Below are positions 1 to 64,000 of a stretch of DNA of 64,000 bases, one piece after another. Position 1 is the first letter of the stretch. Every line of letters starts with the position of its first letter. The notes under the pieces are model-generated. The model made no database searches and had not been told where the DNA came from. It worked only from the letters and a program-made list of their open reading frames with translations. This stretch comes from Chaenocephalus aceratus (Eukaryota; Chordata; Actinopteri; Perciformes; Channichthyidae), in assembly GCA_023974075.1 (NCBI GenBank), contig JAMFTG010000267.1, positions 1 through 64,000 of the forward strand, read 5' to 3'. A program made the translations under genes and the position numbers.

Positions 1-3000
1 GTGTCCCTTGAGCAAGACACTTTAGGACAAATCGCTTCCCGTAGTCATGACTACGGTATTGAAGTGTTTGTCACGTAATATATATATTTTTGTTTTCTTC
101 TGTTTCTTTACCTATTCTCTACCAGGTAAGCCATTAAGAAAACAGAAAGTCCTATGCGGATGTGACTTGGTTCACATCCGATGTGTCCTTGAGCAAACAC
201 TTTAGCACAAATCGCTCCCGTAGGCATGTCTACGGTATTGAAGTGTTTGTAACGTAATATATATATTTTTGTTTTTCTTCTGTTTTCTCTACCTACTCTC
301 TGGCAGATAGTTCATTAAGAAAACAGAAATCATTGGCGGATGTTGCCTTCTTGAGACGTGACCATCTCTACTCACAAAATGTGAGAAAGGGAATTTAATC
401 ATGTGCCAACGTTTGCACTAAGTAAGTAATGGAGAATAGGGTTTGTTTTCTTCTGTTTCTTTACCTATTCTCTACCAGGTAAGCCATTAAGAAAACAGAA
501 GTCCTATGCGGATATGACTTTGGGTCACATGCCGATGTGTCCTTGAGCAAGACACTTTAGGACAAATCGCTCCCGTAGTCATGACTACGGTAATTGAAGT
601 GTTTGTAACGTAATATATATATTTTTGTTTTCTTCTGTTTCTTTACCTATTCTCTAACCAGGTAAGCCATTAAGAAAACAGAAGTCCTATACGGATATGA
701 CTTTGGGTCACATCCGCATAGGAACTTGGGTCACATGCCAATGTGTCCTTGAGCAAGACACCTTAGCACAAATCGCTCCCGTAGTCATGTCTATGGGTAT
801 TGAAGTTGTTTGTAACGTAATATATGTATTTTTGTTTTCTTCTGTTTCTCTACCTACTCTCTGGCAGATAGTTCATTAGAGAAAACAGAAATCATTGGCG
901 GATGTTGCCTTCTTGCGAACGTGACCATCTCTACTCACAAAATGTGAGAAAGGGAATTTATCAATGTGCCAACGTTTGCACTAAGTAAGTAATGGAGAAT
1001 ATGGGTTTGTTTATCTTCTGTTTCTCTTACCTATTCTCTACCAGGTAAGCCATTAAGGAAAACAGAAAGTCCTATACGGATATGACTTTGGGTCACATGC
1101 GCATAGGACTTTGGCTCACATGCCGATGTGTCCTTGAGCCAGACACTTTAGGACAATCGCTCCCGTAGTCATACTAGTATTGAAGTGTTTGTAACGTAAT
1201 ATATATTTTTGTTTTTCTTCTGTTTCTTTACCTATTCTCTACCAGGTAAGCCATAAGAAAAACAGAAAGTCCTATACGGATATGACTTTGGGTCACATCC
1301 GCATAGGACTTTGGCTCACATGCCGATGTGGTCCTTGAGCAATACACCTTAGCACAAATCGCTCCCGTAGTCCTGTCTACGGTATTGAAGTGTTTGTAAC
1401 GTTATATATATATTTTTGTTTTCTTCTGTTTCTCTAACCTACTCTCTGGCAGATAGTTCATTAAGAAAACAGAAATCAGTGGCGGATGTTGCCTTCTTGA
1501 GACGTGACCATCTCTACTCACAAAATGTGAGAAAGGGAAATTTATCATGTGCCAACGTTTGCACTAAGTAAGTAATGGAGAATAGGTTGTTTTTCTTCTG
1601 TTCTTTACCTATTCTCTACCAGGTAAGCCATTAAGAAAACAGAAAGTCCTATGCGGATATGACTTGGGTCACATGCCGATGTGTCCTTGAGCAAGACACT
1701 TAGGACAATCGCTCCCGTAGTCATGACTACGTTATTGAAGTGTTTGTAACGTAATATATATATTTTTGTTTTCTTCTGTTTTCTTTACCTATTCTCTACC
1801 AGGTAAGCCATTAAGAAAACAGAAAGTCCTATACGGATATGACTTTGGGTCACATCCGCATAGGACTTTGGGTCACATGCCAATGTGTCCTTGAGCAAGA
1901 CACCTTAGCACAAATCGCTCCCGTAGTCATGTCTATGGTATTGAAGTGTTTGTAACGTAATATATATATTTTTGTTTTCTTCTGTTTCTCTACCTACTCT
2001 CTGGCAGATAGTTCATTAAGAAAACAGAAATCATTGGCGGATGTTGCCTTCTTGAGACGTGACCATCTCTACTCACAAAATGTGAGAAAGGGAATTTATC
2101 ATGTGCCAACGTTTGCACTAAGTAAGTAATGGAGAATAGGGTTTGTTTTCTTCTGTTTCTTTACCTATTCTCTACCAGGTAAGCCATTAAGAAAACAGAA
2201 AGTCCTATGCGGATGTGACTTTGGTTCACATCCGATGTGTCCTTGAGCAGACACTTTAGCACAAACAACGCTCCCGTAGGCATGTCTACGGTATGAAGTG
2301 TTTGTAACGTAATATATTTTGTTTTCTTTTTTTGTTTCTCTACCTACTCTCTGGCAGATAGTTCATTAAGAAAACAGAAATCATTGGCGGATGTTGCCTT
2401 CTTGAGACGTGACCATCTCTACTCACAAAATGTGAGAAAGGGAATTTCATGTGCCAACGTTTGCACTAAGTAAGTAATGGAGAATAGGGTTTGTTTTCTC
2501 TTCTGTTCTTACCTATTCTCTACCAGGTAAGCCATTAAGAAAACAGAAAGTCCTATACGGATGACTTGGGTCACATGCCGATGTGTCCTTGAGCAAGACA
2601 CTTTAGGACAAATCGCTCCCGTAGTCATGACTACGGTATTGAAGTGTTTGTAACGTAATATATATATTTTTGTTTTCTTCTGTTTCTTTACCTATTCTCT
2701 ACCAGGTAAGCCATTAAGAAAACAGAAAGTCCTATACGGATATGACTTTGGGTCACATCCGCATAGGACTTTGGCTCACATGCCGATGTGTCCTTGAGCA
2801 AGACACCTTAGCACAAATCGCTCCCGTAGTCATGTCTACGGTATTGAAGTGTTTGTAACGTAATATATATATTTTTGTTTTCTTCTGTTTCTCTACCTAC
2901 TCTCTGGCAGATAGTTCATTAAGAAAACAGAAATCATTGGCGGATGTTGCCTTCTTGAGACGTGACCATCTACTCACAAAATGTGAGAAAGGGAATTTAT

Positions 3001-4304
3001 CATGTGCCAACGTTTGCACTAAGTAAGTAATGGAGAATAGGGTTGTTTTCTTCTGTTTCTTTACCTATTCTCTACCAGGTAAGCCATTAAGAAAACAGAA
3101 AGTCCTATGCGGATGTGACTTTGGTCACATCCGATGTGTCCTTGAGCAAGACACCTTAGCACAAATCGCTCCCGTAGTCATGTCTACGGTATTGAAGTGT
3201 TTGTAACGTAATATATATTTTTGTTTTCTTCTGTTTCTCTACCTACTCTCTGGCAGATAGTTCATTAAGAAAACAGAAATCATTGGCGGATGTTGCCTTC
3301 TTGAGACGTGACCATCTCTACTCACAAAATGTGAGAAAGGGAATTTATCATGTGCCAACGTTTGCACTAAGTAAGTAATGGAGAATAGGGTTTGTTTTCT
3401 TCTGTTTCTTTACCTATTCTCTACCAGGTAAGCCATTAAGAAAACAGAAAGTCCTATGCGGATGTGACTTTGGTTCACATCCGATGTGTCCGTGAGCAAG
3501 ACACTTTAGCACAAATCGCTCCCGTAGGCATGTCTACGGTATTGAAGTGTTTGTAACGTAATATATATATTTTTGTTTTTCTTCTTGTTTCTCTACCTAC
3601 TCTCTGGCAGATAGTTCAATTAAGAAAACAGAAATCATTGGCGGATGTTGCCTTCTTGAGACGTGACCATCTCTACTCACAAAATGTGAGAAGGGAATTT
3701 ATCATGTGCCAACGTTTGCACTAAGTAAGTAATGAGAATAGGGTTTTGTTTTCTTCTGTTTCTTTACCTATTCTCTACCAGGTAAGCCATTAAGAAAACA
3801 GAAAGTCCTATGCGGATATGACTTTGGGTCACATGCCGATGTGTCCTTGAGCAAGACACTTTAGGACAAATCGCTCCGTAGTCATGACTACGGTATGAAG
3901 TGTTTGTAACGTAATATATATATTTTTGTTTTCTTCTGTTTCTTTACCTATTCTCTACCAGGTAAGCCATTAAGAAAACAGAAAGTCCTATACGGATATG
4001 ACTTTGGGTCACATCCGCATAGACTTTGGGTCACATGCCAATGTGTCCTTGAGCAAGACACCTTAGCACAAATCGCTCCCGTAGTCATGTCTATGGTATT
4101 GAAGTGTTTGTAACGTAATATATGGTATTTTTGTTTTTCTTCTGTTTCTCTAACCTACTCTCTGGCAGATAGTTCATTAAGAAAACAGAAATCATTGGCG
4201 GATGTTGCTTCTTGAGACGTGACCATCTCTACTCACAAAATGTGAGAAAGGGAATTTATCATGTGCCAACGTTTGCACTAAGTAAGTAATGGAGAATAGG
4301 GTTT
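1..4304 (+). repeat. Partial, rearranged left segment
   Basis: Module order with starts: A tail 1, E 92, C 271, A 445, B 627, C 834, D/A chimera 1019, B 1211, C 1418, A 1589, B 1768, C 1974, E 2145, C 2321, A 2493, B* 2682, C 2877, E* 3045, C 3223, E 3394, C 3575, A 3748, B 3928, C 4133. There is no intact D module. The last part (E-C-A-B-C before D) matches the run into 17,445, but earlier parts do not match the 22.9 kb HOR in order. Indel-rich. Confidence 0.85.
1019..1210 (+). repeat. Chimeric D/A module
   Basis: Front has the D mark catgcgcataggactttggctc, but the rear is A-like (cactttaggac, gtagtcat...) and runs into an AT tract and a B module instead of a D tail. No other module in the window combines these. 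It sits in indel-rich sequence, so a mis-joined read is possible. Confidence 0.6.
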
Positions 4305-5523
4305 GTTTTCTTCTGTTCTTTACCTATTCTCTACCAGGTAAGCCATTAAGAAAACAGAAGTCCTATACGGATATGACTTTGTGTCCAGCGCATAGGACCT
4401 TTGGCTCCATGCCGATGTGTCCTTGAGCAAGACACTTCAGGACAAAATCGCTCCTTAGGCATGTCTACGTGTATTGAAGTGTTTGTACATTACTATGTTT
4501 CAAATGTTCATCTCTACTCAAAAATGTCAGACAGGGAATTTATCATTTGCCAATGTTTGCACTAAGTAAGTAATGGAGAATAGGGTTTGTTTTCTTCTGT
4601 TTCTTTACCTATTCTCTACCAGGTAAGCCATTAAGAAAACAGAAAGTCCTATACGGATGTGACTTTGGGTCACATGCCGATGTGTCCTTGAGCAAGACAC
4701 TTTAGGACAAATCGCTCCCGTAGTCATGACTATGGTATTGAAGTGTTGTGTAACGTAATATATATATTTTGTTTTCTTCTGTTTCTTTACCTATTCTCTA
4801 CCAGGTAAGCCATTAAGAAAACAGAAAGTCCTATACGGATATGACTTTGGGTCACATCCGCATAGGACTTTGGGTCACATGCCAATGTGTCCTTGAGCAA
4901 AACACCTTAGCACAAATCCGCTCCCGTAGTCATGTCTATGGTATTGAAGTGTTTGTAACGTAATATATATATTTTGTTTTCTTCTGTTTCTCTACCTACT
5001 CTCTGGCAGATAGTTCATTAAGAAAACAGAAATCATTGGCGGATGTTGCCTTCTTGAGACGTGACCATCTCTACTCACAAAATGTGAGAAAGGGAATTTA
5101 TCATGTGCCAACGTTTGCACTAAGTAAGTAATGGAGAAATAGGGTTTGTTTTTCTTCTGTTTTCTTTACCTATTCTCTACCAGGTAAGCCATTAAGAAAA
5201 CAGAAGTCCTATACGGATATGACTTTGGGTCACATCCGCATAGGACTTTGGGTCACATGCCAATGTGTCCTTGAGCAAGACACCTTAGCACAAATCGCTC
5301 CCGTAGTCATGTCTATGGTATTGAAGTGTTTGTAACGTAATATATATATTTTTGTTTTCTTCTGTTTCTCTACCTACTCTCTGGCAGATAGTTCATTAAG
5401 AAAACAGAAATCATTGGCGGATGTTGCCTTCTTGAGACGTGACCATCTCTACTCACAAAATGTGAGAAAGGGAATTTATCATGTGCCAACGTTTGCACTA
5501 AGTAAGTAATGGAGAATAGGTTT
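4305..5523 (+). repeat. Segment D-A'-B-C-B-C
   Basis: D 4305 (gcgcatagg; gtacattactatg variant), A' 4589, B 4771, C 4976, B 5148, C 5354. Same order at 17,445 and 40,206. Confidence 0.88.
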
Positions 5524-8500
5524 GTTTTCTTCTGTTTCTTTACCTATTCTCTACCAGGTAAGCCATTAAGAAAACAGAAAGTCCTATGCGGATATGACTT
5601 TGGGTCACATCCGCATAGGACTTTGGCTCAACATGCCGATGTGTCCTTGAGCAAGGACACTTCAGGACAAATCGCTCCCTTAGGCATGTCTACGGTATTG
5701 AAGTGTTTGTACATTAATATGTTTCAAATGTTCATCTCTACTCACAAAATGTCAGACAGGGAATTTATCATTTGCCAATGTTTGCACTAAGTAAAGTAAT
5801 GGAGAATAGGGTTTGTTTTCTTCTGTTTCTTTACCTATTCTCTACCAGGTAAGCCATTAAGAAAACAGAAAGTCCTATACGGATGTGACTTTGGGTCACA
5901 TGCCGATGTGTCCTTGAGCAAGACACTTTAGGACAAATCGCTCCGTAGTCATGACTACGGTATTGAAGTGTTTGTAACGTAATATATATATTTTTGTTTT
6001 CTTCTGTTTCTTTACCTATTCTCTACCAGGTAAGCCATTAAGAAAACAGAAAGTCCTATGCGGATATGACTTTGGGGTCACATGCCGATGTGTCCTTGAG
6101 CAAGACACTTTAGGACAAATCGCTCCCGTAGTCATGACTACGGTATTGAAGTGTTTGTAACGTAATATATATATTTTTGTTTTCTTCTGTTTCTTTACCT
6201 ATTCTCTACCAGGTAAGCCATTAAGAAAACAGAAAGTCCTATACGGATATGACTTTGGGTCACATCCGCATAGGACTTTGGGTCACATGCCAATGTGTCC
6301 TTTGAGCAAGACACCTTAGCACAAATCGCTCCCGTAGTCATGTCTATGGTATTGAAGTGTTTGTAACGTAATATATATATTTTTGTTTTCTTCTGTTTCT
6401 CTACCTACTCTCTGGCAGATAGTTCATTAAGAAAACAGAAATCATTGGCGGATGTTGCCTTCTTGAGACGTGACCATCTCTACTCACAAATGTGAGAAAG
6501 GGAATTTATCATGTGCCAACGTTGCACTAAGTAAGTAATGGAGAATAGGGTTTGTTTTCTTCTGTTTCTTTACCTATTCTCTACCAGGTAAGCCATTAAG
6601 AAAACAGAAAGTCCTATGCGGATGTGACTTTGGTTCACATCCGATGTGTCCTTGAGCAAGACACTTTAGCACAAATCGCTCCCGTAGGCATGTCTACGGT
6701 ATTGAAGTGTTTGTAACGTAATATATATTTTTGTTTTCTTCTGTTTCTCTACCTACTCTCTGGCAGATAGTTCATTAAGAAAACAGAAATCATTGGCGGA
6801 TGTTGCCTTCTTGAGACGTGACCATCTCTACTCACAAAATGTGAGAAAGGGAATTTATCATGTGCCAACGTTTGCACTAAGTAAGTAATGGAGAATAGGG
6901 TTTGTTTTCTTCTGTTTCTTTACCTATTCTCTACCAGGTAAGCCATTAAGAAAACAGAAAGTCCTATGCGGATATGACTTTGGGGTCACATGCCGATGTG
7001 TCCTTGAGCAAGACACTTTAGGACAAATCGCTCCCGTAGTCATGACTACGGTATTGAAGTGTTTGTAACGTAATATATATATTTTTGTTTTCTTCTGTTT
7101 CTCTACCTATTCTCTACCAGGTAAGCCATTAAGAAAACAGAAAGTCCTATACGGATATGACTTTGGGTCACATCCGCATAGGACTTTGGGTCACATGCCA
7201 ATGTGTCCTTGAGCAAGACACCTTAGCACAAATCGCTCCCGTAGTCATGTCTATGGTATTGAAGTGTTTGTAACGTAATATATATATTTTTGTTTTCTTT
7301 CTGTTTCTCTACCTACTCTCTGGCAGATAGTTCATTAAGAAAACAGAAATCATTGGCGGATGTTGCCTTCTTGAGACGTGACCATCTCTACTCACAAAAT
7401 GTGAGAAAGGGAATTTATCATGTGCCAACGTTTGCACTAAGTAAGTAATGGAGAATAGGGTTTGTTTTCTTCTGTTTCTTTACCTATTCTCTACCAGGTA
7501 AGCCATTAAGAAAACAGAAAGTCCTATGCGGATATGACTTTGGGTCACATGCCGATGTGTCCTTGAGCAAGACACTTTAGGACAAATCGCTCCCGTAGTC
7601 ATGACTACGGTATTGAAGTGTTTGTAACGTAATATATATATTTTTGTTTTCTTCTGTTTCTTTACCTATTCTCTACCAGGTAAGCCATTAAGAAAACAGA
7701 AAGTCCTATACGGATATGACTTTGGGTCACATCCGCATAGGACTTTGGCTCACATGCCGATGTGTCCTTGAGCAAGACACCTTAGCACAAATCGCTCCCG
7801 TAGTCATGTCTACGGTATTGAAGTGTTTTGTAACGTAATATATATATTTTTGTTTTCTTCTGTTTCTCTACCTACTCTCTGGCAGATAGTTCATTAAGAA
7901 AACAGAAATCATTGGCGGATGTTGCCTTCTTGAGACGTGACCATCTCTACTCACAAAATGTGAGAAAGGGAATTTATCATGTGCCAACGTTTGCACTAAG
8001 TAAGTAATGGAGAATAGGGTTTGTTTTCTTCTGTTTCTTTACCTATTCTCTACCAGGTAAGCCATTAAGAAAACAGAAAGTCCTATGCGGATGTGACTTT
8101 GGTTCACATCCGATGTGTCCTTGAGCAAGACACCTTAGCACAAATCGCTCCCGTAGTCATGTCTACGGTATTGAAGTGTTTGTAACGTAATATATATATT
8201 TTTGTTTTCTTCTGTTTCTCTACCTACTCTCTGGCAGATAGTTCATTAAGAAAACAGAAATCATTGGCGGATGTTGCCTTCTTGAGACGTGACCATCTCT
8301 ACTCACAAAATGTGAGAAAGGGAATTTATCATGTGCCAACGTTTGCACTAAGTAAGTAATGGAGAATAGGGTTTGTTTTCTTCTGTTTCTTTACCTATTC
8401 TCTACCAGGTAAGCCATTAAGAAAACAGAAAGTCCTATGCGGATATGACTTTGGGTCACATGCCGATGTGTCCTTGAGCAAGACACTTTAGGACAAATCG

Positions 8501-11314
8501 CTCCCGTAGTCATGACTACGGTATTGAAGTGTTTGTAACGTAATATATATATTTTTGTTTTCTTCTGTTTCTTTACCTATTCTCTACCAGGTAAGCCATT
8601 AAGAAAACAGAAAGTCCTATACGGATATGACTTTGGGTCACATCCGCATAGGACGTTGGGTCACATGCCAATGTGTCCTTGAGCAAGACACCTTAGCACA
8701 AATCGCTCCCGTAGTCATGTCTATGGTATTGAAGTGTTTGTAACGTAATATATGTATTTTTTGTTTTCTTCTGTTTCTCTACCCTACTCTCTGGCAGATA
8801 GTTCATTAAGAAAACAGAAATCATTGGCGGATGTTGCCTTCTTGAGACGTGACCATCTCTACTCACAAAATGTGAGAAAGGGAATTTATCATGTGCCAAC
8901 GTTTGCACTAAGTAAGTAATGGAGAATAGGGTTTGTTTTTCTTCTGTTTCTTTACCTATTCTCTACCAGGTAAGCCATTAGAAAACAGAAAGTCCTATGC
9001 GGATGTGACTTTGTTCACATCCGATGTGTCCTTGAGCAAGACACTTTAGCACAAATCGCTCCGTAGGCATGTCTACGGTATTGAAGTGTTTGTAACGTAA
9101 TATATATATTTTTGTTTTCTTCTGTTTCTCTACCTACTCTCTGGCAGATAGTTCATTAAGAAAACAGAAATCATTGGCGGATGTTGCCTTCTTGAGACGT
9201 GGACCATCTCTACTCACAAAATGTGAGAAAGGGAATTTATCATGTGCCAACGTTTGCACTAAGTAAGTAATGGAGAATAGGGTTTGTTTTCTTCTGTTTC
9301 TTTACCTATTCTCTACCAGGTAAGCCATTAAGAAAACAGAAAGTCCTATGCGGATATGACTTTGGTCACATGCCGATGTGTCCTTGAGCAAGACACTTTA
9401 GGACAAATCGCTCCCGTAGTCATGACTACGGTATTGAAGTGTTTGTAACGTAATATATATATTTTTGTTTTCTTCTGTTTCTTTACCTATTCTCTACCAG
9501 GTAAGCCATTAAGAAAACAGAAAGTCCTATACGGATATGACTTTTGGGTCACATCCGCATAGGACTTTGGGTCACATGCCAATGTGTCCTTGAGCAAGAC
9601 ACCTTAGCACAAATCGCTCCCGTAGTCATGTCTATGGTATTGAAGTGTTTGTAACGTAATATATGTATTTTTTGTTTTCTTCTGTTTCTCTACCTACTCT
9701 CTGGCAGATAGTTCATTAAGAAAACAGAAATCATTGGCGGATGTTGCCTTCTTGAGACGTGACCATCTCTACTCACAAAATGTGAGAAAGGGAATTTATC
9801 ATGTGCCAACGTTTGCACTAAGTAAGTAATGGAGAATAGGGTTTGTTTTCTTCTGTTTCTTTACCTATTCTCTACCAGGTAAGCCATTAAGAAAACAGAA
9901 AGTCCTATGCGGATATGACTTTGGGTCACATGCGATGTGTCCTTGAGCAAGACACTTTAGGACAAATCGCTCCCGTAGTCATGACTACGGTATTGAGTGT
10001 TTGTAACGTAATATATATATTTTTGTTTTCTTCTGTTTCTTACCTATTCTCTACCAGGTAAGCCATTAAGAAAACAGAAAGTCCTATACGGATATGACTT
10101 TGGGTCACATCCGCATAGGACTTTGGGTCACATGCCAATGTGTCCTTGAGCAAGACACCTTAGCACAAATCGCTCCCGTAGTCATGTCTATGGTATTGAA
10201 GTGTTTGTAACGTAATATATATATTTTTGTTTTCTTCTGTTTCTCTACCTACTCTCTGGCAGATAGTTCATTAAGAAAACAGAAATCATTGGCGGATGTT
10301 GCCTTCTTGAGACGTGGACCATCTCTACTCACAAAATGTGAGAAAGGGAATTTATCATGTGCCAACGTTTGCACTAAGTAAGTAATGGAGAATAGGGTTT
10401 GTTTTCTTCTGTTTCTTTACCTATTTCTCTACCAGGTAAGCCATTAAGAAAACAGAAAGTCCTATACGGATGTGACTTTGGTTCACATCCGATGTGTCCT
10501 TGAGCAAGACACTTTAGCACAAATCGCTCCCGTAGGCATGTCTACGGTATTGAAGTGTTTGTAACGTAATATATATATTTTTTGTTTTCTTCTGTTTCTC
10601 TACCTACTCTCTGGCAGATAGTTCATTAAGAAAACAGAAATCATTGGCGGATGTTGCCTTCTTGAGACGTGACCATCTCTACTCACAAAATGTGAGAAAG
10701 GGAATTTATCATGTGCCAACGTTTGCACTAAGTAAGTAATGGAGAATAGGGTTTGTTTTCTTCTGTTTCTTTACCTATTCTCTACCAGGTAAGCCATTAA
10801 GAAAACAGAAAGTCCTATGCGGATATGACTTTGGGTCACATGCCGATGTGTCCTTGAGCAAGACACTTTAGGACAAATCGCTCCCGTAGTCATGACTACG
10901 GTATTGAAGTGTTTGTAACGTAATATATATATTTTTGTTTTCTTCTGTTTCTTTTACCTATTCTCTACCAGGTAAGCCATTAAGAAAACAGAAAGTCCTA
11001 TACGGATATGACTTTGGGTCACATCCGCATAGGACTTTGGGTCACATGCCAATGTGTCCTTGAGCAAGGACACCTTAGCACAAATCGCTCCCGTAGTCAT
11101 GTCTATGGTATTGAAGTGTTTGTAACGTAATATATGTATTTTTGTTTTCTTCTGTTTCTCTACCTACTCTCTGGCAGATAGTTCATTAAGAAAACAGAAA
11201 TCATTGGCGGATGTTGCCTTCTTGAGACGTGACCATCTCTACTCACAAAATGTGAGAAAGGGAATTTATCATGTGCCAACGTTTGCACTAAGTAAGTAAT
11301 GGAGAATAGGGTTT
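5524..11314 (+). repeat. Segment of the short HOR with the 9,845 junction
   Basis: D 5524 (catccgcat), A' 5815, A 5996, B 6179, C 6385, E 6554, C 6733, A 6904, B 7087, C 7292, A 7464, B* 7646, C 7852, E* 8023, C 8204, A 8375, B 8557, C 8763, E 8935, C 9114, A 9286, B 9467, C 9674; then A 9845, B 10025, C 10229, E 10401 (tacgg type), C 10584, A 10755, B 10937, C 11144. Confidence 0.87.
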
Positions 11315-51705: not shown

Positions 51706-51749
51706 GTTTGTTTTCTTCTGTTTCTTTACCTATTCTCTACCAGGTAAGC
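51706..51749 (+). promoter_or_regulatory. Ratchet-point-like acceptor/donor in A, A', B, E, D and ED heads
   Basis: The head of each non-C module is a pyrimidine run ending ctctaccag, followed at once by gtaagc: an acceptor and a donor abutting with no exon between (CAG 51741-51743, GTAAGC 51744-51749). This layout matches the zero-length-exon sites used in recursive splicing of long introns. Use as such is inference; the motif recurs at every A, A', B, E, D and ED head. Confidence 0.35.
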
Positions 51750-52096: not shown

Positions 52097-52130
52097 GTTT
52101 TCTTCTGTTTCTCTACCTACTCTCTGGCAG
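52093..52130 (+). promoter_or_regulatory. 3' splice-acceptor-like site of module C
   Basis: A pyrimidine-rich stretch of about 35 bases (ttttgttttcttctg, tttctctacctactctctgg) ends in CAG at 52128-52130. About 40 bases upstream, tgtaacg could act as a branch site. This matches the general eukaryotic acceptor pattern closely. The copy at 53,591-53,600 reads ggcaa, destroying the AG. Confidence 0.45.
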
Positions 52131-52244
52131 ATAGTTCATTAAGAAAACAGAAATCATTGGCGGATGTTGCCTTCTTGAGACGTGACCATCTCTACTCACA
52201 AAATGTGAGAAAGGGAATTTATCATGTGCCAACGTTTGCACTAA
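52131..52244 (+). other. Exon-like 114-bp segment in module C (reference copy)
   Basis: Bounded on the left by a long pyrimidine tract and ctctctggcag (acceptor AG at 52129-52130) and on the right by GTAAGT at 52245-52250. One frame is open across all 114 bases: 2 nt, 37 codons, 1 nt. The end phases match, so copies spliced together would keep frame and make a 38-residue repeat beginning N-SSLRKQKSLADV and ending GIYHVPTFAL, rich in Lys and Arg. About 109 C modules occur in the window. I do not recognise the peptide. No start codon context, terminal exon or transcript evidence is visible, and observed substitutions look neutral, so coding status is unproven. Confidence 0.4.
52195..52209 (+). 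repeat. Small hairpin in C modules
   Basis: ctcaca-aaa-tgtgag forms a 6-bp stem with a 3-base loop inside the exon-like segment. In D and ED tails the right arm is tgtcag, which breaks one pair. Confidence 0.7.
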
Positions 52245-52250
52245 GTAAGT
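52245..52250 (+). promoter_or_regulatory. 5' splice-donor-like GTAAGT after C
   Basis: The phrase boundary reads cactaa|gtaagtaatgg. Positions +1 to +6 fit the donor consensus perfectly; the last exon base is A rather than G, which weakens it. The same motif ends D and ED tails (with gtaagtattgg in ED copies that precede D). Donor-to-next-C-acceptor distance would be 444 bp in A-B-C, 262 in B-C and 238 in E-C. Confidence 0.4.
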
Positions 52251-53734
52251 AATGGAGAATAGGGTTTGTTTTCTTCTGTTTCTTTACCTATTCTCTACCA
52301 GGTAAGCCATTAAGAAAACAGAAAGTCCTATGCGGATATGACTTTGGGTCACATGCCGATGTGTCCTTGAGCAAGACACTTTAGGACAAATCGCTCCCGT
52401 AGTCATGACTACGGTATTGAAGTGTTTGTAACGTAATATATATATTTTTGTTTTCTTCTGTTTCTTTACCTATTCTCTACCAGGTAAGCCATTAAGAAAA
52501 CAGAAAGTCCTATACGGATATGACTTTGGGTCACATCCGCATAGGACTTGGCTCACATGCCGATGTGTCCTTGAGCAAGACACCTTAGCACAAATCGCTC
52601 CCGTAGTCATGTCTACGGTATTGAAGTGTTTGTAACGTAATATATATATTTTTGTTTTCTTCTGTTTCTCTACCTACTCTCTGGCAGATAGTTCATTAAG
52701 AAAACAGAAATCATTGGCGGATGTTGCCTTCTTGAGACGTGACCATCTCTACTCACAAAATGTGAGAAAGGGAATTTATCATGTGCCAACGTTTGCACTA
52801 AGTAAGTAATGGAGAATAGGGTTTGTTTTCTTCTGTTTCTTTACCTATTCTCTACCAGGTAAGCCATTAAGAAAACAGAAAGTCCTATGCGGATGTGACT
52901 TTGGTTCACATCCGATGTGTCCTTGAGCAAGACACCTTAGCACAAATCGCTCCCGTAGTCATGTCTACGGTATTGAAGTGTTTGTAACGTAATATATATA
53001 TTTTTGTTTTCTTCTGTTTCTCTACCTACTCTCTGGCAGATAGTTCATTAAGAAAACAGAAATCATTGGCGGATGTTGCCTTCTTGAGACGTGACCATCT
53101 CTACTCACAAAATGTGAGAAAGAGAATTTATCATGTGCCAACGTTTGCACTAAGTAAGTAATGGAGAATAGGGTTTGTTTTCTTCTGTTTCTTTACCTAT
53201 TCTCTACCAGGTAAGCCATTAAGAAAACAGAAAGTCCTATGCGGATATGACTTTGGGTCACATGCCGATGTGTCCTTGAGCAAGACACTTTAGGACAAAT
53301 CGCTCCCGTAGTCATGACTACGGTATTGAAGTGTTTGTAACGTAATATATATATTTTTGTTTTCTTCTGTTTCTTTACCTATTCTCTACCAGGTAAGCCA
53401 TTAAGAAAACAGAAAGTCCTATACGGATATGACTTTGGGTCACATCCGCATAGGACTTTGGGTCACATGCCAATGTGTCCTTGAGCAAGACACCTTAGCA
53501 CAAATCGCTCCCGTAGTCATGTCTATGGTATTGAAGTGTTTGTAACGTAATATATGTATTTTTGTTTTCTTCTGTTTCTCTACCTACTCTCTGGCAAATA
53601 GTTCATTAAGAAAACAGAAATCATTGGCGGATGTTGCCTTCTTGAGACGTGACCATCTCTACTCACAAAATGTGAGAAAGGGAATTTATCATGTGCCAAC
53701 GTTTGCACTAAGTAAGTAATGGAGAATAGGGTTT

Positions 53735-53915
53735 GTTTTCTTCTGTTTCTTTACCTATTCTCTACCAGGTAAGCCATTAAGAAAACAGAAAGTCCTATGC
53801 GGATGTGACTTTGGTTCACATCCGATGTGTCCTTGAGCAAGACACTTTAGCACAAATCGCTCCCGTAGGCATGTCTACGGTATTGAAGTGTTTGTAACGT
53901 AATATATATATTTTT
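53735..53915 (+). repeat. Module E, reference copy (181 bp)
   Basis: A short relative of A and B, marked by gcggatgtgactttggttcac followed by atccgatgtgtcc. It carries cactttagcac and gtaggcatgtctacgg. It lacks the 23-bp duplication of B. E is followed by C (352-bp phrase) or runs into a D-type tail (ED). A sub-variant E* has caccttagcac and gtagtcatgtctacgg, the right half of B*, so it looks like an E/B* recombinant. Confidence 0.93.
53800..53824 (+). repeat. Hairpin in E modules, 9-bp stem
   Basis: cggatgtga and tcacatccg pair perfectly around the 7-base loop ctttggt. It is the shortened counterpart of the B inverted repeat, still formed though the outer cataggac segment is absent. Confidence 0.8.
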
Positions 53916-56900
53916 GTTTTCTTCTGTTTCTCTACCTACTCTCTGGCAGATAGTTCATTAAGAAAACAGAAATCATTGGCGGATGTTGCCTTCTTGAGAC
54001 GTGACCATCTCTACTCACAAAATGTGAGAAAGGGAATTTATCATGTGCCAACGTTTGCACTAAGTAAGTAATGGAGAATAGGGTTTGTTTTCTTCTGTTT
54101 CTTTACCTATTCTCTACCAGGTAAGCCATTAAGAAAACAGAAAGTCCTATGCGGATATGACTTTGGGTCACATGCCGATGTGTCCTTGAGCAAGACACTT
54201 TAGGACAAATCGCTCCCGTAGTCATGACTACGGTATTGAAGTGTTTGTAACGTAATATATATATTTTTGTTTTCTTCTGTTTCTTTACCTATTCTCTACC
54301 AGGTAAGCCATTAAGAAAACAGAAAGTCCTATACGGATATGACTTTGGGTCACATCCGCATAGGACTTTGGGTCACATGCCAATGTGTCCTTGAGCAAGA
54401 CACCTTAGCACAAATCGCTCCCGTAGTCATGTCTATGGTATTGAAGTGTTTGTAACGTAATATATGTATTTTTGTTTTCTTCTGTTTCTCTACCTACTCT
54501 CTGGCAGATAGTTCATTAAGAAAACAGAAATCATTGGCGGATGTTGCCTTCTTGAGACGTGACCATCTCTACTCACAAAATGTGAGAAAGGGAATTTATC
54601 ATGTGCCAACGTTTGCACTAAGTAAGTAATGGAGAATAGGGTTTGTTTTCTTCTGTTTCTTTACCTATTCTCTACCAGGTAAGCCATTAAGAAAACAGAA
54701 AGTCCTATACGGATATGACTTTGGGTCACATGCGCATAGGACTTTGGCTCACATGCCGATGTGTCCTTGAGCAAGACACTTCAGGACAAATCGCTCCCTT
54801 AGGCATGTCTACGGTATTGAAGTGTTTGTACATTAATATGTTTCAAATGTTCATCTCTACTCACAAAATGTCAGACAGGGAATTTATCATTTGCCAATGT
54901 TTGCACTAAGTAAGTAATGGAGAATAGGGTTTGTTTTCTTCTGTTTCTTTACCTATTCTCTACCAGGTAAGCCATTAAGAAAACAGAAAGTCCTATACGG
55001 ATGTGACTTTGGGTCACATGCCGATGTGTCCTTGAGCAAGACACTTTAGGACAAATCGCTCCCGTAGTCATGACTACGGTATTGAAGTGTTTGTAACGTA
55101 ATATATATATTTTTGTTTTCTTCTGTTTCTTTACCTATTCTCTACCAGGTAAGCCATTAAGAAAACAGAAAGTCCTATACGGATATGACTTTGGGTCACA
55201 TCCGCATAGGACTTTGGGTCACATGCCAATGTGTCCTTGAGCAAGACACCTTAGCACAAATCGCTCCCGTAGTCATGTCTATGGTATTGAAGTGTTTGTA
55301 ACGTAATATATATATTTTTGTTTTCTTCTGTTTCTCTACCTACTCTCTGGCAGATAGTTCATTAAGAAAACAGAAATCATTGGCGGATGTTGCCTTCTTG
55401 AGACGTGACCATCTCTACTCACAAAATGTGAGAAAGGGAATTTATCATGTGCCAACGTTTGCACTAAGTAAGTAATGGAGAATAGGGTTTGTTTTCTTCT
55501 GTTTCTTTACCTATTCTCTACCAGGTAAGCCATTAAGAAAACAGAAAGTCCTATGCGGATATGACTTTGGGTCACATGCCGATGTGTCCTTGAGCAAGAC
55601 ACTTTAGGACAAATCGCTCCCGTAGTCATGACTACGGTATTGAAGTGTTTGTAACGTAATATATATATTTTTGTTTTCTTCTGTTTCTTTACCTATTCTC
55701 TACCAGGTAAGCCATTAAGAAAACAGAAAGTCCTATACGGATATGACTTTGGGTCACATCCGCATAGGACTTTGGGTCACATGCCAATGTGTCCTTGAGC
55801 AAGACACCTTAGCACAAATCGCTCCCGTAGTCATGTCTATGGTATTGAAGTGTTTGTAACGTAATATATATATTTTTGTTTTCTTCTGTTTCTCTACCTA
55901 CTCTCTGGCAGATAGTTCATTAAGAAAACAGAAATCATTGGCGGATGTTGCCTTCTTGAGACGTGACCATCTCTACTCACAAAATGTGAGAAAGGGAATT
56001 TATCATGTGCCAACGTTTGCACTAAGTAAGTAATGGAGAATAGGGTTTGTTTTCTTCTGTTTCTTTACCTATTCTCTACCAGGTAAGCCATTAAGAAAAC
56101 AGAAAGTCCTATACGGATGTGACTTTGGTTCACATCCGATGTGTCCTTGAGCAAGACACTTTAGCACAAATCGCTCCCGTAGGCATGTCTACGGTATTGA
56201 AGTGTTTGTAACGTAATATATATATTTTTGTTTTCTTCTGTTTCTCTACCTACTCTCTGGCAGATAGTTCATTAAGAAAACAGAAATCATTGGCGGATGT
56301 TGCCTTCTTGAGACGTGACCATCTCTACTCACAAAATGTGAGAAAGGGAATTTATCATGTGCCAACGTTTGCACTAAGTAAGTAATGGAGAATAGGGTTT
56401 GTTTTCTTCTGTTTCTTTACCTATTCTCTACCAGGTAAGCCATTAAGAAAACAGAAAGTCCTATGCGGATATGACTTTGGGTCACATGCCGATGTGTCCT
56501 TGAGCAAGACACTTTAGGACAAATCGCTCCCGTAGTCATGACTACGGTATTGAAGTGTTTGTAACGTAATATATATATTTTTGTTTTCTTCTGTTTCTTT
56601 ACCTATTCTCTACCAGGTAAGCCATTAAGAAAACAGAAAGTCCTATACGGATATGACTTTGGGTCACATCCGCATAGGACTTTGGGTCACATGCCAATGT
56701 GTCCTTGAGCAAGACACCTTAGCACAAATCGCTCCCGTAGTCATGTCTATGGTATTGAAGTGTTTGTAACATAATATATGTATTTTTGTTTTCTTCTGTT
56801 TCTCTACCTACTCTCTGGCAGATAGTTCATTAAGAAAACAGAAATCATTGGCGGATGTTGCCTTCTTGAGACGTGACCATCTCTACTCACAAAATGTGAG

Positions 56901-56958
56901 AAAGGGAATTTATCATGTGCCAACGTTTGCACTAAGTAAGTAATGGAGAATAGGGTTT

Positions 56959-57222
56959 GTTTTCTTCTGTTTCTTTACCTATTCTCTACCAGGTAAGCCA
57001 TTAAGAAAACAGAAAGTCCTATGCGGATGTGACTTTGGTTCACATCCGATGTGTCCTTGAGCAAGACACTTTAGCACAAATCGCTCCCGTAGGCATGTCT
57101 ACGGTATTGAAGTGTTTGTACATTAATATGTTTCAAATGTTCATCTCTACTCACAAAATGTCAGACAGGGAATTTGTCATTTGCCAACGTTTGCACTAAG
57201 TAAGTATTGGAGAATAGGGTTT
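56959..57222 (+). repeat. Module ED, reference copy (264 bp)
   Basis: An E front (gtgactttggttcac, gtaggcatg) fused to the D tail (gtacattaatatg...). This copy is of the kind followed by D: it reads gaatttgtcatttgccaacg and has tattggagaat at its end. The other kind, followed by A', reads gaatttatcatttgccaatg and leads into an A' with ctgattcttt. The two kinds keep their partners in each HOR copy. Confidence 0.9.
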
Positions 57223-60200
57223 GTTTTCTTCTGTTTCTTTACCTATTCTCTACCAGGTAAGCCATTAAGAAAACAGAAAGTCCTATACGGATATGACTTT
57301 GGGTCACATCCGCATAGGACTTTGGCTCACATGCCGATGTGTCCTTGAGCAAGACACTTCAGGACAAATCGCTCCCTTAGGCATGTCTACGGTATTGAAG
57401 TGTTTGTACATTAATATGTTTCAAATGTTCATCTCTACTCACAAAATGTCAGACAGGGAATTTATCATTTGCCAATGTTTGCACTAAGTAAGTAATGGAG
57501 AATAGGGTTTGTTTTCTTCTGTTTCTTTACCTATTCTCTACCAGGTAAGCCATTAAGAAAACAGAAAGTCCTATACGGATGTGACTTTGGGTCACATGCC
57601 GATGTGTCCTTGAGCAAGACACTTTAGGACAAATCGCTCCCGTAGTCATGACTACGGTATTGAAGTGTTTGTAACGTAATATATATATTTTTGTTTTCTT
57701 CTGTTTCTTTACCTATTCTCTACCAGGTAAGCCATTAAGAAAACAGAAAGTCCTATGCGGATATGACTTTGGGTCACATGCCGATGTGTCCTTGAGCAAG
57801 ACACTTTAGGACAAATCGCTCCCGTAGTCATGACTACGGTATTGAAGTGTTTGTAACGTAATATATATATTTTTGTTTTCTTCTGTTTCTTTACCTATTC
57901 TCTACCAGGTAAGCCATTAAGAAAACAGAAAGTCCTATACGGATATGACTTTGGGTCACATCCGCATAGGACTTTGGGTCACATGCCAATGTGTCCTTGA
58001 GCAAGACACCTTAGCACAAATCGCTCCCGTAGTCATGTCTATGGTATTGAAGTGTTTGTAACGTAATATATATATTTTTGTTTTCTTCTGTTTCTCTACC
58101 TACTCTCTGGCAGATAGTTCATTAAGAAAACAGAAATCATTGGCGGATGTTGCCTTCTTGAGACGTGACCATCTCTACTCACAAAATGTGAGAAAGGGAA
58201 TTTATCATGTGCCAACGTTTGCACTAAGTAAGTAATGGAGAATAGGGTTTGTTTTCTTCTGTTTCTTTACCTATTCTCTACCAGGTAAGCCATTAAGAAA
58301 ACAGAAAGTCCTATGCGGATGTGACTTTGGTTCACATCCGATGTGTCCTTGAGCAAGACACTTTAGCACAAATCGCTCCCGTAGGCATGTCTACGGTATT
58401 GAAGTGTTTGTAACGTAATATATATATTTTTGTTTTCTTCTGTTTCTCTACCTACTCTCTGGCAGATAGTTCATTAAGAAAACAGAAATCATTGGCGGAT
58501 GTTGCCTTCTTGAGACGTGACCATCTCTACTCACAAAATGTGAGAAAGGGAATTTATCATGTGCCAACGTTTGCACTAAGTAAGTAATGGAGAATAGGGT
58601 TTGTTTTCTTCTGTTTCTTTACCTATTCTCTACCAGGTAAGCCATTAAGAAAACAGAAAGTCCTATGCGGATGTGACTTTGGTTCACATCCGATGTGTCC
58701 TTGAGCAAGACACTTTAGCACAAATCGCTCCCGTAGGCATGTCTACGGTATTGAAGTGTTTGTAACGTAATATATATATTTTTGTTTTCTTCTGTTTCTC
58801 TACCTACTCTCTGGCAGATAGTTCATTAAGAAAACAGAAATCATTGGCGGATGTTGCCTTCTTGAGACGTGACCATCTCTACTCACAAAATGTGAGAAAG
58901 GGAATTTATCATGTGCCAACGTTTGCACTAAGTAAGTAATGGAGAATAGGGTTTGTTTTCTTCTGTTTCTTTACCTATTCTCTACCAGGTAAGCCATTAA
59001 GAAAACAGAAAGTCCTATGCGGATATGACTTTGGGTCACATGCCGATGTGTCCTTGAGCAAGACACTTTAGGACAAATCGCTCCCGTAGTCATGACTACG
59101 GTATTGAAGTGTTTGTAACGTAATATATATATTTTTGTTTTCTTCTGTTTCTTTACCTATTCTCTACCAGGTAAGCCATTAAGAAAACAGAAAGTCCTAT
59201 ACGGATATGACTTTGGGTCACATCCGCATAGGACTTTGGGTCACATGCCGATGTGTCCTTGAGCAAGACACCTTAGCACAAATCGCTCCCGTAGTCATGT
59301 CTACGGTATTGAAGTGTTTGTAACGTAATATATATATTTTTGTTTTCTTCTGTTTCTCTACCTACTCTCTGGCAGATAGTTCATTAAGAAAACAGAAATC
59401 ATTGGCGGATGTTGCCTTCTTGAGACGTGACCATCTCTACTCACAAAATGTGAGAAAGGGAATTTATCATGTGCCAACGTTTGCACTAAGTAAGTAATGG
59501 AGAATAGGGTTTGTTTTCTTCTGTTTCTTTACCTATTCTCTACCAGGTAAGCCATTAAGAAAACAGAAAGTCCTATACGGATATGACTTTGGGTCACATC
59601 CGCATAGGACTTTGGGTCACATGCCAATGTGTCCTTGAGCAAGACATCTTAGCACAAATCGCTCCCGTAGTCATGTCTATGGTATTGAAGTGTTTGTAAC
59701 GTAATATATATATTTTTGTTTTCTTCTGTTTCTCTACCTACTCTCTGGCAGATAGTTCATTAAGAAAACAGAAATCATTGGCGGATGTTGCCTTCTTGAG
59801 ACGTGACCATCTCTACTCACAAAATGTGAGAAAGGGAATTTATCATGTGCCAACGTTTGCACTAAGTAAGTAATGGAGAATAGGGTTTGTTTTCTTCTGT
59901 TTCTTTACCTATTCTCTACCAGGTAAGCCATTAAGAAAACAGAAAGTCCTATGCGGATGTGACTTTGGTTCACATCCGATGTGTCCTTGAGCAAGACACT
60001 TTAGCACAAATCGCTCCCGTAGGCATGTCTACGGTATTGAAGTGTTTGTACATTAATATGTTTCAAATGTTCATCTCTACTCACAAAATGTCAGACAGGG
60101 AATTTATCATTTGCCAATGTTTGCACTAAGTAAGTAATGGAGAATAGGGTTTGTTTTCTTCTGATTCTTTACCTATTCTCTACCAGGTAAGCCATTAAGA

Positions 60201-60892
60201 AAACAGAAAGTCCTATACGGATGTGACTTTGGGTCACATGCCGATGTGTCCTTGAGCAAGACACTTTAGGACAAATCGCTCCCGTAGTCATGACTACGGT
60301 ATTGAAGTGTTTGTAACGTAATATATATATTTTTGTTTTCTTCTGTTTCTTTACCTATTCTCTACCAGGTAAGCCATTAAGAAAACAGAAAGTCCTATGC
60401 GGATATGACTTTGGGTCACATGCCGATGTGTCCTTGAGCAAGACACTTTAGGACAAATCGCTCCCGTAGTCATGACTACGGTATTGAAGTGTTTGTAACG
60501 TAATATATATATTTTTGTTTTCTTCTGTTTCTTTACCTATTCTCTACCAGGTAAGCCATTAAGAAAACAGAAAGTCCTATACGGATATGACTTTGGGTCA
60601 CATCCGCATAGGACTTTGGGTCACATGCCAATGTGTCCTTGAGCAAGACACCTTAGCACAAATCGCTCCCGTAGTCATGTCTACGGTATTGAAGTGTTTG
60701 TAACGTAATATATATATTTTTGTTTTCTTCTGTTTCTCTACCTACTCTCTGGCAGATAGTTCATTAAGAAAACAGAAATCATTGGCGGATGATGCCTTCT
60801 TGAGACGTGACCATCTCTACTCACAAAATGTGAGAAAGGGAATTTATCATGTGCCAACATTTGCACTAAGTAAGTAATGGAGAATAGGGTTT
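56959..60892 (+). repeat. Last HOR-matching segment of copy 2
   Basis: ED 56959, D 57223, A' 57511, A 57693, B 57875, C 58080, E 58251, C 58432, E 58603, C 58784, A 58955, B 59137, C 59342, B 59513 (gacatcttag), C 59718, ED 59889, A' 60153 (ctgattcttt), A 60335, B 60517, C 60722. Confidence 0.93.
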
Positions 60893-61156
60893 GTTTTCTT
60901 CTGTTTCTTTACCTATTCTCTACCAGGTAAGCCATTAAGAAAACAGAAAGTCCTATGCGGATGTGACTTTGGTTCACATCCGATGTGTCCTTGAGCAAGA
61001 CACTTTAGCACAAATCGCTCCCGTAGGCATGTCTACGGTATTGAAGTGTTTGTACATTAATATGTTTCAAATGTTCATCTCTACTCACAAAATGTCAGAC
61101 AGGGAATTTATCATTTGCCAATGTTTGCACTAAGTAAGTAATGGAGAATAGGGTTT
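58251..61156 (+). repeat. 2,906-bp tandem duplication, left copy
   Basis: Order E-C-E-C-A-B-C-B-C-ED-A'-A-B-C-ED. Module lengths sum to exactly 2,906. It carries gatgatgcc (60,788) and caacatttgc (60,855), both rare in the window. Confidence 0.93.
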
Positions 61157-64000
61157 GTCTTCTTCTGTTTCTTTACCTATTCTCTACCAGGTAAGCCATT
61201 AAGAAAACAGAAAGTCCTATGCGGATGTGACTTTGGTTCACATCCGATGTGTCCTTGAGCAAGACACTTTAGCACAAATCGCTCCCGTAGGCATGTCTAC
61301 GGTATTGAAGTGTTTGTAACATAATATATATATTTTTGTTTTCTTCTGTTTCTCTACCTACTCTCTGGCAGATAGTTCATTAAGAAAACAGAAATCATTG
61401 GCGGATGTTGCCTTCTTGAGACGTGACCATCTCTACTCACAAAATGTGAGAAAGGGAATTTATCATGTGCCAACGTTTGCACTAAGTAAGTAATGGAGAA
61501 TAGGGTTTGTTTTCTTCTGTTTCTTTACCTATTCTCTACCAGGTAAGCCATTAAGAAAACAGAAAGTCCTATGCGGATGTGACTTTGGTTCACATCCGAT
61601 GTGTCCTTGAGCAAGACACTTTAGCACAAATCGCTCCCGTAGGCATGTCTACGGTATTGAAGTGTTTGTAACGTAATATATATATTTTTGTTTTCTTCTG
61701 TTTCTCTACCTACTCTCTGGCAGATAGTTCATTAAGAAAACAGAAATCATTGGCGGATGTTGCCTTCTTGAGACGTGACCATCTCTACTCACAAAATGTG
61801 AGAAAGGGAATTTATCATGTGCCAACGTTTGCACTAAGTAAGTAATGGAGAATAGGGTTTGTTTTCTTCTGTTTCTTTACCTATTCTCTACCAGGTAAGC
61901 CATTAAGAAAACAGAAAGTCCTATGCGGATATGACTTTGGGTCACATGCCGATGTGTCCTTGAGCAAGACACTTTAGGACAAATCGCTCCCGTAGTCATG
62001 ACTACGGTATTGAAGTGTTTGTAACGTAATATATATATTTTTGTTTTCTTCTGTTTCTTTACCTATTCTCTACCAGGTAAGCCATTAAGAAAACAGAAAG
62101 TCCTATACGGATATGACTTTGGGTCACATCCGCATAGGACTTTGGGTCACATGCCGATGTGTCCTTGAGCAAGACACCTTAGCACAAATCGCTCCCGTAG
62201 TCATGTCTACGGTATTGAAGTGTTTGTAACGTAATATATATATTTTTGTTTTCTTCTGTTTCTCTACCTACTCTCTGGCAGATAGTTCATTAAGAAAACA
62301 GAAATCATTGGCGGATGTTGCCTTCTTGAGACGTGACCATCTCTACTCACAAAATGTGAGAAAGGGAATTTATCATGTGCCAACGTTTGCACTAAGTAAG
62401 TAATGGAGAATAGGGTTTGTTTTCTTCTGTTTCTTTACCTATTCTCTACCAGGTAAGCCATTAAGAAAACAGAAAGTCCTATACGGATATGACTTTGGGT
62501 CACATCCGCATAGGACTTTGGGTCACATGCCAATGTGTCCTTGAGCAAGACATCTTAGCACAAATCGCTCCCGTAGTCATGTCTATGGTATTGAAGTGTT
62601 TGTAACGTAATATATATATTTTTGTTTTCTTCTGTTTCTCTACCTACTCTCTGGCAGATAGTTCATTAAGAAAACAGAAATCATTGGCGGATGTTGCCTT
62701 CTTGAGATGTGACCATCTCTACTCACAAAATGTGAGAAAGGGAATTTATCATGTGCCAACGTTTGCACTAAGTAAGTAATGGAGAATAGGGTTTGTTTTC
62801 TTCTGTTTCTTTACCTATTCTCTACCAGGTAAGCCATTAAGAAAACAGAAAGTCCTATGCGGATGTGACTTTGGTTCACATCCGATGTGTCCTTGAGCAA
62901 GACACTTTAGCACAAATCGCTCCCGTAGGCATGTCTACGGTATTGAAGTGTTTGTACATTAATATGTTTCAAATGTTCATCTCTACTCACAAAATGTCAG
63001 ACAGGGAATTTATCATTTGCCAATGTTTGCACTAAGTAAGTAATGGAGAATAGGGTTTGTTTTCTTCTGATTCTTTACCTATTCTCTACCAGGTAAGCCA
63101 TTAAGAAAACAGAAAGTCCTATACGGATGTGACTTTGGGTCACATGCCGATGTGTCCTTGAGCAAGACACTTTAGGACAAATCGCTCCCGTAGTCATGAC
63201 TACGGTATTGAAGTGTTTGTAACGTAATATATATATTTTTGTTTTCTTCTGTTTCTTTACCTATTCTCTACCAGGTAAGCCATTAAGAAAACAGAAAGTC
63301 CTATGCGGATATGACTTTGGGTCACATGCCGATGTGTCCTTGAGCAAGACACTTTAGGACAAATCGCTCCCGTAGTCATGACTACGGTATTGAAGTGTTT
63401 GTAACGTAATATATATATTTTTGTTTTCTTCTGTTTCTTTACCTATTCTCTACCAGGTAAGCCATTAAGAAAACAGAAAGTCCTATACGGATATGACTTT
63501 GGGTCACATCCGCATAGGACTTTGGGTCACATGCCAATGTGTCCTTGAGCAAGACACCTTAGCACAAATCGCTCCCGTAGTCATGTCTACGGTATTGAAG
63601 TGTTTGTAACGTAATATATATATTTTTGTTTTCTTCTGTTTCTCTACCTACTCTCTGGCAGATAGTTCATTAAGAAAACAGAAATCATTGGCGGATGATG
63701 CCTTCTTGAGACGTGACCATCTCTACTCACAAAATGTGAGAAAGGGAATTTATCATGTGCCAACATTTGCACTAAGTAAGTAATGGAGAATAGGGTTTGT
63801 TTTCTTCTGTTTCTTTACCTATTCTCTACCAGGTAAGCCATTAAGAAAACAGAAAGTCCTATGCGGATGTGACTTTGGTTCACATCCGATGTGTCCTTGA
63901 GCAAGACACTTTAGCACAAATCGCTCCCGTAGGCATGTCTACGGTATTGAAGTGTTTGTACATTAATATGTTTCAAATGTTCATCTCTACTCACAAAATG
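60893..64000 (+). repeat. Right end after the HOR break
   Basis: ED 60893, E 61157, C 61338, E 61509, C 61690, A 61861, B 62043, C 62248, B 62419 (gacatcttag), C 62624, ED 62795, A' 63059 (ctgattcttt), A 63241, B 63423, C 63628, ED 63799 (partial). The ED-to-E join at 61,157 is the only one of its kind in the window. Confidence 0.93.
61157..64000 (+). repeat. 2,906-bp tandem duplication, right copy (cut by window end)
   Basis: Same order as 58,251-61,156, with gatgatgcc at 63,694 and caacatttgc at 63,761, each exactly 2,906 bp later. New changes here: gtttgtctt at 61,157, aacataatat near 61,319, gagatgtgacc near 62,705. The last ED (63,799) is truncated by the window. Confidence 0.93.

What the first reader, a model, noticed from the sequence alone, without database searches (positions are those of the whole stretch)
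1..64000. Multi-level satellite hierarchy with a module-by-module HOR of 22.9 kb
Modules of 171-288 bp form phrases of 264-558 bp, which form multi-kb blocks, which form a 22.9 kb unit repeated with the same order and shared private variants (ctgattcttt at 14,509, 37,272 and 60,161; gacatcttag near 13,992, 36,756 and 59,643; tatatggata at 19,381 and 42,141). Alpha-satellite HORs are usually a few kb; a 23 kb unit of more than 100 modules is unusually long.
Basis: seen in the sequence. Interest (0 to 1): 0.75.

Follow-up and report, generated by a model that had tools for sequence, protein, structure and literature searches.

The report
Huge duplicated unit in fish-like satellite
A 118-piece, 22.9-kb stretch of short repeated DNA occurs a little over twice in a row in a small satellite array of what looks like a fish genome; the order is clear in the sequence, but the first copy lies in error-rich sequence at the contig's end, so raw reads must confirm it before its unusual size is believed.

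Summary
The 22.9-kb period is present: 150 consecutive modules (9,286-38,269) recur in the same order at 32,049-61,157, offset by exactly 118 modules (22,763 and 22,884 bp). The longest repeated run in 120 Markov strings of modules was 29. But there are only about 2.27 copies. The period breaks before 9.3 kb and after 61.2 kb and is absent from there to the array's end near 92 kb. Two of the three 'private' markers also occur out of register.

Nothing marks the array as centromeric. A B-module 39-mer occurs in five places on three contigs of a 1.06-Gb vertebrate (fish-like) assembly. Part of the modules matches a SINE-like element. The contig looks like an alternate version of a locus 0.3 Mb from the end of contig C11, beside a TRIM gene cluster, where the array is only about 19 kb.

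Main caveat: window 1-36 kb is unpolished contig-end sequence (8-21 indels/kb against 0.2-0.8 later), so the first copy could be a false duplication. About 20 real-looking substitutions between the copies argue against a simple one. Best reading: unequal exchange in a low-copy satellite made a very long HOR-like duplication.

The parts
1..36000 (+). error-rich, unpolished contig-end stretch (holds U0, all of U1 and the first 4 kb of U2)
   Evidence: indels against module consensus 12.5, 8.1, 21.2 and 11.4 per kb in 1-10, 10-20, 20-30 and 30-36 kb, against 0.76, 0.33, 0.22 and 0.84 in 36-40, 40-55, 55-73 and 73-92 kb
3223..9845 (+). U0: partial unit; matches the middle of the unit (16,362-22,953 and 39,125-45,742, 35 modules), then jumps to the unit's start, as if about 9.6 kb were missing
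9286..32048 (+). U1: first full 118-module unit (22,763 bp as written, with sequencing-type indels)
32049..54932 (+). U2: second full 118-module unit (22,884 bp), clean from 36 kb on
54933..61156 (+). U3: partial third unit, first 32 modules; the order then departs
58251..64000 (+). 2,906-bp block in two head-to-tail copies (second copy ends just past the window, at C267:64,062); puts marker copies out of the 22.9-kb register
14509..14518 (+). marker CTGATTCTTT (also 37,272, 60,161 and, off register, 63,067)
13991..14000 (+). marker GACATCTTAG (also 36,754, 59,643 and, off register, 62,549 and C267:68,916)
19381..19390 (+). marker TATATGGATA (also 42,141; U0 has another letter at this place, 6,244)

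Best explanation
A low-copy satellite, partly derived from a SINE-like element, in a vertebrate (fish-like) genome. Unequal exchange and conversion between misaligned stretches of the array copied a 118-module (22.9-kb) block head to tail, giving about 2.27 HOR-like copies in this version of the locus. Shown: module order, period, extent, error profile, shared and unshared variants, census of one 39-mer. Inferred: the exchange mechanism, that the contig is the alternate haplotype of the C11 30.36-Mb locus, that the noisy first copy is real, and that the array has no role of its own beyond being recombination-prone repeat DNA.
For: 150-module run against at most 29 in 120 Markov strings; lag of 118 modules twice. 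Of 19 U2 variants in 36-49.2 kb, 17 recur in U1 at the same module place, the other two sites being hit by U1 deletions. From 26.4 to 38.0 kb U1 and U2/U3 differ by 24 clean mismatches, about 20 of them not of the error-like kind, so U1 is not just a noisy reread of 32.7-61 kb. The unit's starting block is present twice inside the noisy stretch itself (9.7-15.2 and 32.4-36 kb). Blocks repeated at many other lags (2.9, 3.7, 8.9, 9.3 kb and more), 1.3-1.9 substitutions per kb apart in those four pairs, show an array that keeps rearranging. The flanking TRIM cluster is also duplicated in tandem, at 94-98% identity.
Against: All of U1 lies in unpolished contig-end sequence. The first 16.4 kb of U1 and U2 are too alike for this array: 7 clean mismatches, 5 of them transversions as in read noise, where 25 are expected from four other repeat pairs, which also fits one stretch assembled twice. 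The other version of the locus on C11 has only about 19 kb of array and lacks exact copies of the two marker words searched. No reads were available.
Confidence: 0.6

Rival explanations
1. Assembly artefact: one or a few error-rich long reads at the contig start were not collapsed onto 32.7-61 kb, or were joined at the wrong copy of the unit's starting block, so that one unit (or two non-adjacent ones) reads as two in tandem.
For: Indel rate drops from 11.4 to 0.76 per kb at 36 kb, a read-like length from the contig end. 16.4 kb with 7 clean mismatches where 25 are expected. Error-rich, read-length 'homotype' false duplications on unplaced scaffolds are described (PMC9516828, passages).
Against: About 20 real-looking substitutions, 15 of all 24 being transitions, between the second parts of the copies; variants of U2 at 53,123 and 53,597 are not in U1; if C267 and C11 are the two haplotypes, no third one is left to supply the noisy stretch (inference).
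Confidence: 0.3
2. A functional centromeric HOR array, as in primates.
For: Nucleosome-scale modules, HOR-like order, and single-strand folding above shuffles in A, C and D modules (z -4.4, -6.1, -4.8; B only -2.3).
Against: 39-mer census: 240 hits in five places on three contigs; the C11 arrays lie inside a large contig, at 25.26 and 30.34 Mb of 30.66 Mb, the latter beside a TRIM cluster; no strict CENP-B box. Absence from other chromosomes could reflect missing centromeres in the assembly.
Confidence: 0.03
3. No unit at all: the 22.9-kb peak is chance agreement of a few common phrases.
For: Phrases such as A-C-B and D-B recur throughout, and many shorter lags match too.
Against: 150 modules in a row against at most 29 in 120 Markov strings, plus shared rare variants.
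Confidence: 0.01

Closest known systems
Very long alpha-satellite HORs: orangutan chromosome 13 59mer (PMC11276891, passages) and Y 58mer, with a preliminary 84mer (PMC12428378, abstract)
   Same: Long unit of about 170-bp-scale modules, near-identical between copies, with module types repeated inside the unit.
   Different: Here 118 modules but only about 2.27 copies (eight 59mer copies, 67 58mer copies there); modules of one type are 99.4% alike inside the unit (139 pairs), so the unit is defined by order, not by diverged monomers (22.4% apart in the 59mer); sequence is not shown to be related to alpha satellite.
SINE-derived satellites of squamate reptiles (PMC10702118, abstract)
   Same: Tandem repeats that take in part of a SINE and stay in modest copy number.
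   Different: Here a fish-like genome, an L2-like tail seen only at the array edge, and a mosaic module of which the SINE-like part is only one piece.
22.7-kb duplication in maize centromere 10 (PMC4806543, passages)
   Same: A duplication of similar length in a repeat-rich region.
   Different: A plant centromere; I take the like length as coincidence.
Homotype false duplications of long-read assemblies (PMC9516828, passages)
   Same: Error-rich, read-length extra copy (here at a contig end).
   Different: Here the copies also differ by real-looking substitutions.

Membership tests
Higher-order repeat (HOR) | A block of many modules repeats with the same internal order | tested here: met
   150-module run at a 118-module lag
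Higher-order repeat (HOR) | Copies of the unit are far more alike than modules within a unit | tested here: inconclusive
   Clean U2/U3 modules 99.5% (14 pairs); U1/U2 98.5% with U1 noise (150 pairs); random pairs within the unit 76.6% (600 pairs), but same-type pairs 99.4% (139 pairs)
Higher-order repeat (HOR) | Many tandem copies of the unit | tested here: not met
   About 2.27 copies; period ends at 61.2 kb
Alpha satellite / centromeric satellite | CENP-B box | tested here: not met
   0 strict matches on either strand in C267:1-92,000; not all centromeric satellites have one
Alpha satellite / centromeric satellite | High copy number on most chromosomes | tested here: not met
   39-mer of the B module: 240 exact hits, five places, three contigs; the assembly may lack centromeres and diverged copies would be missed
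Alpha satellite / centromeric satellite | CENP-A occupancy | not testable with these tools
   No chromatin data
SINE-derived satellite | Module shares sequence with a dispersed SINE | tested here: met
   82 of 108 columns with one dispersed element in L042, over module 3' half plus array-edge tail; that the element is a tRNA-derived SINE with an L2-like tail is read by eye and from recall; other dispersed copies were not found because that genome search did not complete
False duplication | Error-rich extra copy at a contig end | tested here: met
False duplication | Copies differ only by sequencing errors | tested here: inconclusive
   9.9-26.4 kb: 7 clean mismatches, mostly error-like; 26.4-38.0 kb: 24, about 20 real-looking
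False duplication | Low read depth over the extra copy | not testable with these tools
   No reads

The most novel reading that the evidence does not exclude
A genuine 118-module, 22.9-kb HOR in a low-copy, partly SINE-derived satellite of a fish-like genome: larger in modules and in length than the alpha-satellite HORs seen here in print (84mer, about 14 kb by my arithmetic), present in one version of the locus only, and defined by the order of nearly identical modules rather than by diverged monomers.
Probability: 0.5. Interest if true: 0.45.

Novelty: new member of a known kind. Interest (0 to 1): 0.3.

Why it matters
If reads confirm it, a small satellite of about 100 kb can build HOR-like units larger than the longest primate HORs seen here, and two versions of one locus can differ in array length and order while their flank differs by about 0.3% in substitutions. 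It is also a clean example of why a long 'HOR' at a contig end needs an error-rate check first.

Tried and rejected
Chance agreement of phrases: rejected by module Markov controls. Simple false duplication of 32.7-61 kb: weakened by real-looking substitutions, not excluded. The idea that C267 is the allele of the C11 25.26-Mb array: set aside when a closer match (99%) turned up at C11 30.358 Mb; the 25.25-Mb flank is 95% alike (17 mismatches, 13 gap openings in 2,561 columns), and of sixteen 600-base probes from C11 25.10-25.2456 Mb none gave a match like that of an allele; the three that matched C267:92.3-160 kb at all (L039, L042, L045) look like dispersed elements (C267:160,001-192,475 was not fetched). 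Exact 31-mer in viral and in bacterial and archaeal collections: 0, as expected. Rfam at gathering thresholds: 0 in the 84,000 bases of window, L014 and L025. CENP-B box: none. Palindromes: long arms in modules A, D and E (4, 3 and 6 of 300 shuffles reach them), but not in B, C and F (136, 143, 191 of 300). The 22.4-kb lag in the flank is a 98% duplication inside the TRIM cluster; I take the like length as coincidence. Probe L019:3000-5000 fell in a dispersed element and did not place the flank. Of seven C11 probes between 30.366 and 30.458 Mb, four matched the TRIM cluster in several places, one matched the C267 end region at 72.6% over 186 bases, two (L065, L067) did not match: same kind of locus, not proof of collinearity.

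Rows dropped before counts: only matches beyond C267:92,300 were printed. One search counts 31 of the 36 clean mismatches (43 mismatches in all; 7 not clean, one clean at 9,665 and four clean beyond 38.0 kb left out). The repeat-pair rate of 1.54 per kb uses four pairs, which overlap in part; X2 against X4 (17 in 5.8 kb) and U0 against U2 (7 in 6.6 kb) were left out.
Full report
What was given. The window is bases 1-64,000 of contig C267 (193,475 bp) of an unnamed assembly of 1,064,297,438 bases in 3,032 contigs. The satellite array fills C267 from base 1 to about 92 kb and then meets other sequence. The genome is a vertebrate's: a connexin piece lies at the far contig end (Pfam Connexin, E 8e-23). 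'Fish-like' is my inference from the flanking genes, LINE and SINE-like elements and genome size; it was not tested against named genomes.

Observation. Splitting the window at the shared module start gives 331 complete modules of a few types: A and a (182 bp), B (171), C, c and k (205), D and d (181), E (264), F (288). Over C267:1-93,500, 481 of 487 modules were typed; the 6 others lie at the degenerate array edge. With minor types collapsed, one run of 150 modules, 9,286-38,269, recurs at 32,049-61,157; the offset is 118 modules both times it can be measured, 22,763 and 22,884 bp. The next runs are 35, 35 and 32 modules long. In 60 first-order and 60 second-order Markov strings the longest run was 29 and 26. 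Minor types disagree at 5 of the 150 places.

Limits of the period. Base alignment at this lag is good from about 9.3-10 kb to 38 kb (partner 61 kb) and breaks on both sides. To the left, 3,223-9,845 matches the middle of the unit and then jumps to its start, as if about 9.6 kb were missing. To the right, the starting block recurs off register at 64,596-70,430 (lag 9.28 kb) and a 2,906-bp block is doubled at 58,251-64,062. No run of 16 or more modules at the 22.9-kb lag lies beyond 61.2 kb. That is about 2.27 units in 51.9 kb.

Error structure. Indels against module consensus run at 12.5, 8.1, 21.2 and 11.4 per kb in 1-10, 10-20, 20-30 and 30-36 kb, mostly next to the same base, and at 0.76, 0.33, 0.22 and 0.84 per kb in 36-40, 40-55, 55-73 and 73-92 kb. 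The first 36 kb is thus, by inference, unpolished contig-end sequence. All of U1 and the first 4 kb of U2 lie in it.

Is the first copy real? From 9.9 to 26.4 kb U1 and U2 show 7 clean mismatches, 5 of them transversions, where 25 are expected at the rate of four other repeat pairs (1.54 per kb). From 26.4 to 38.0 kb there are 24, 15 of them transitions; four are A-to-C or T-to-G changes in U1 like the noise elsewhere, so I judge about 20 real. Where U2 and U3 differ between 32.7 and 38.0 kb, U1 has the U2 letter at 8 of 9 sites (not at 32,736). Of 19 variants of U2 in 36-49.2 kb, 17 recur in U1; the other two sites are hit by U1 deletions; in 49.2-55.7 kb 2 of 5 recur. A noisy reread of the same molecule would not carry the differences in the second part, and the unit's starting block is present twice inside the noisy stretch itself. 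A chimeric or mis-joined contig end cannot be excluded without reads: a read-length, error-rich extra copy is a described artefact (PMC9516828, passages). I put the artefact at 0.3.

Where else it occurs. An exact 39-mer of the B module has 240 hits in the assembly: 137 in C267, 31 at C11 30.329-30.357 Mb, 38 at C11 25.258-25.305 Mb, 16 at C5 33.374-33.394 Mb and 18 at C5 35.859-35.887 Mb. The listing was cut, but these numbers, with C267 and the last C11 hits counted in fetched sequence, add up to the full 168 forward and 72 reverse hits. C267:91.1-97.8 kb, from the array edge into the flank, matches C11 30.356-30.363 Mb at 98.8% (19 mismatches, 34 gap openings in 6,725 columns); C267:93.3 kb onward matches C11 25.254-25.257 Mb at 95%. 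At C11 30.34 Mb the array is about 19 kb judged by the 39-mer hits, and the 10 kb fetched are noisy (12 indels per kb) and differ in module order from C267. C267 thus looks like an alternate version of a locus 0.3 Mb from the end of C11, with a much longer array; that it is a haplotype is inferred, and a collapsed C11 array is possible. In the C11 25.266-25.305 Mb array the longest internal repeat is 29 modules at 6.5 kb.

Origin and mechanism. Module 3' halves plus the tail kept at the array edge (C267:92,436-92,542) match a dispersed element in L042 at 82 of 108 columns; by eye it has a tRNA-like head and an L2-like tail, so I read it as a tRNA-derived SINE, from recall. The satellite would then be partly SINE-derived, as known in squamates (PMC10702118, abstract). 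Blocks repeated at many lags, 1.3-1.9 substitutions per kb apart in the four clean pairs used (2.9 per kb for X2 against X4, partly noisy), fit continuing unequal exchange with conversion (inference). Single strands of A, C and D modules fold better than all 200 shuffles each, B less so (6 of 200 fold as well; first 150 bases of one copy each); no function follows from that alone.

Comparison with print. The orangutan 59mer (eight copies, 0.1% between copies; PMC11276891, passages) and the 58mer (67 copies) and preliminary 84mer (PMC12428378, abstract) show that very long HORs exist. 118 modules and 22.9 kb would exceed these, in only 2.27 copies. Searches for fish HORs, long HORs, SINE satellites and long tandem units (listings only) showed no such case in what was listed; that is not proof of absence.

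Noticed in passing
C267:104,874-160,000 (L015-L020): Tandem cluster of TRIM genes (RING, B-box, coiled coil, PRY-SPRY): five open frames of 592-594 aa, two of them tested with Pfam; blocks 94-98% alike at lags of about 6.8, 14.3, 15.6, 21 and 22.4 kb. Such clusters (finTRIM) are known in teleosts (PMC2657112, listing only).
   Followed up: partly
L025 (C11:25,306,001-25,316,000) and L054 (C11:30,330,001-30,330,500): A LINE with a 1,022-aa endonuclease-reverse transcriptase frame repeats about every 4 kb with pieces of the satellite at its ends, right beside the C11 25.3-Mb array; by eye the same LINE lies beside the 30.34-Mb array.
   Followed up: partly
L032 (C267:192,476-193,475): A connexin gene piece at the contig's right end; by eye the connexin-like residues continue in another frame, so it is either a pseudogene or more contig-end error.
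   Followed up: no
window modules A (position 130-147) and D/E (position 66-90): An 18-bp perfect palindrome in A modules and a 9-bp-arm hairpin in D and E modules; arms that long are reached in 4, 3 and 6 of 300 shuffles, while B, C and F show nothing unusual.
   Followed up: partly
L042 (C11:25,225,353-25,225,457): A dispersed SINE-like element whose body and tail match the satellite module and the array edge, 82 of 108 columns.
   Followed up: partly
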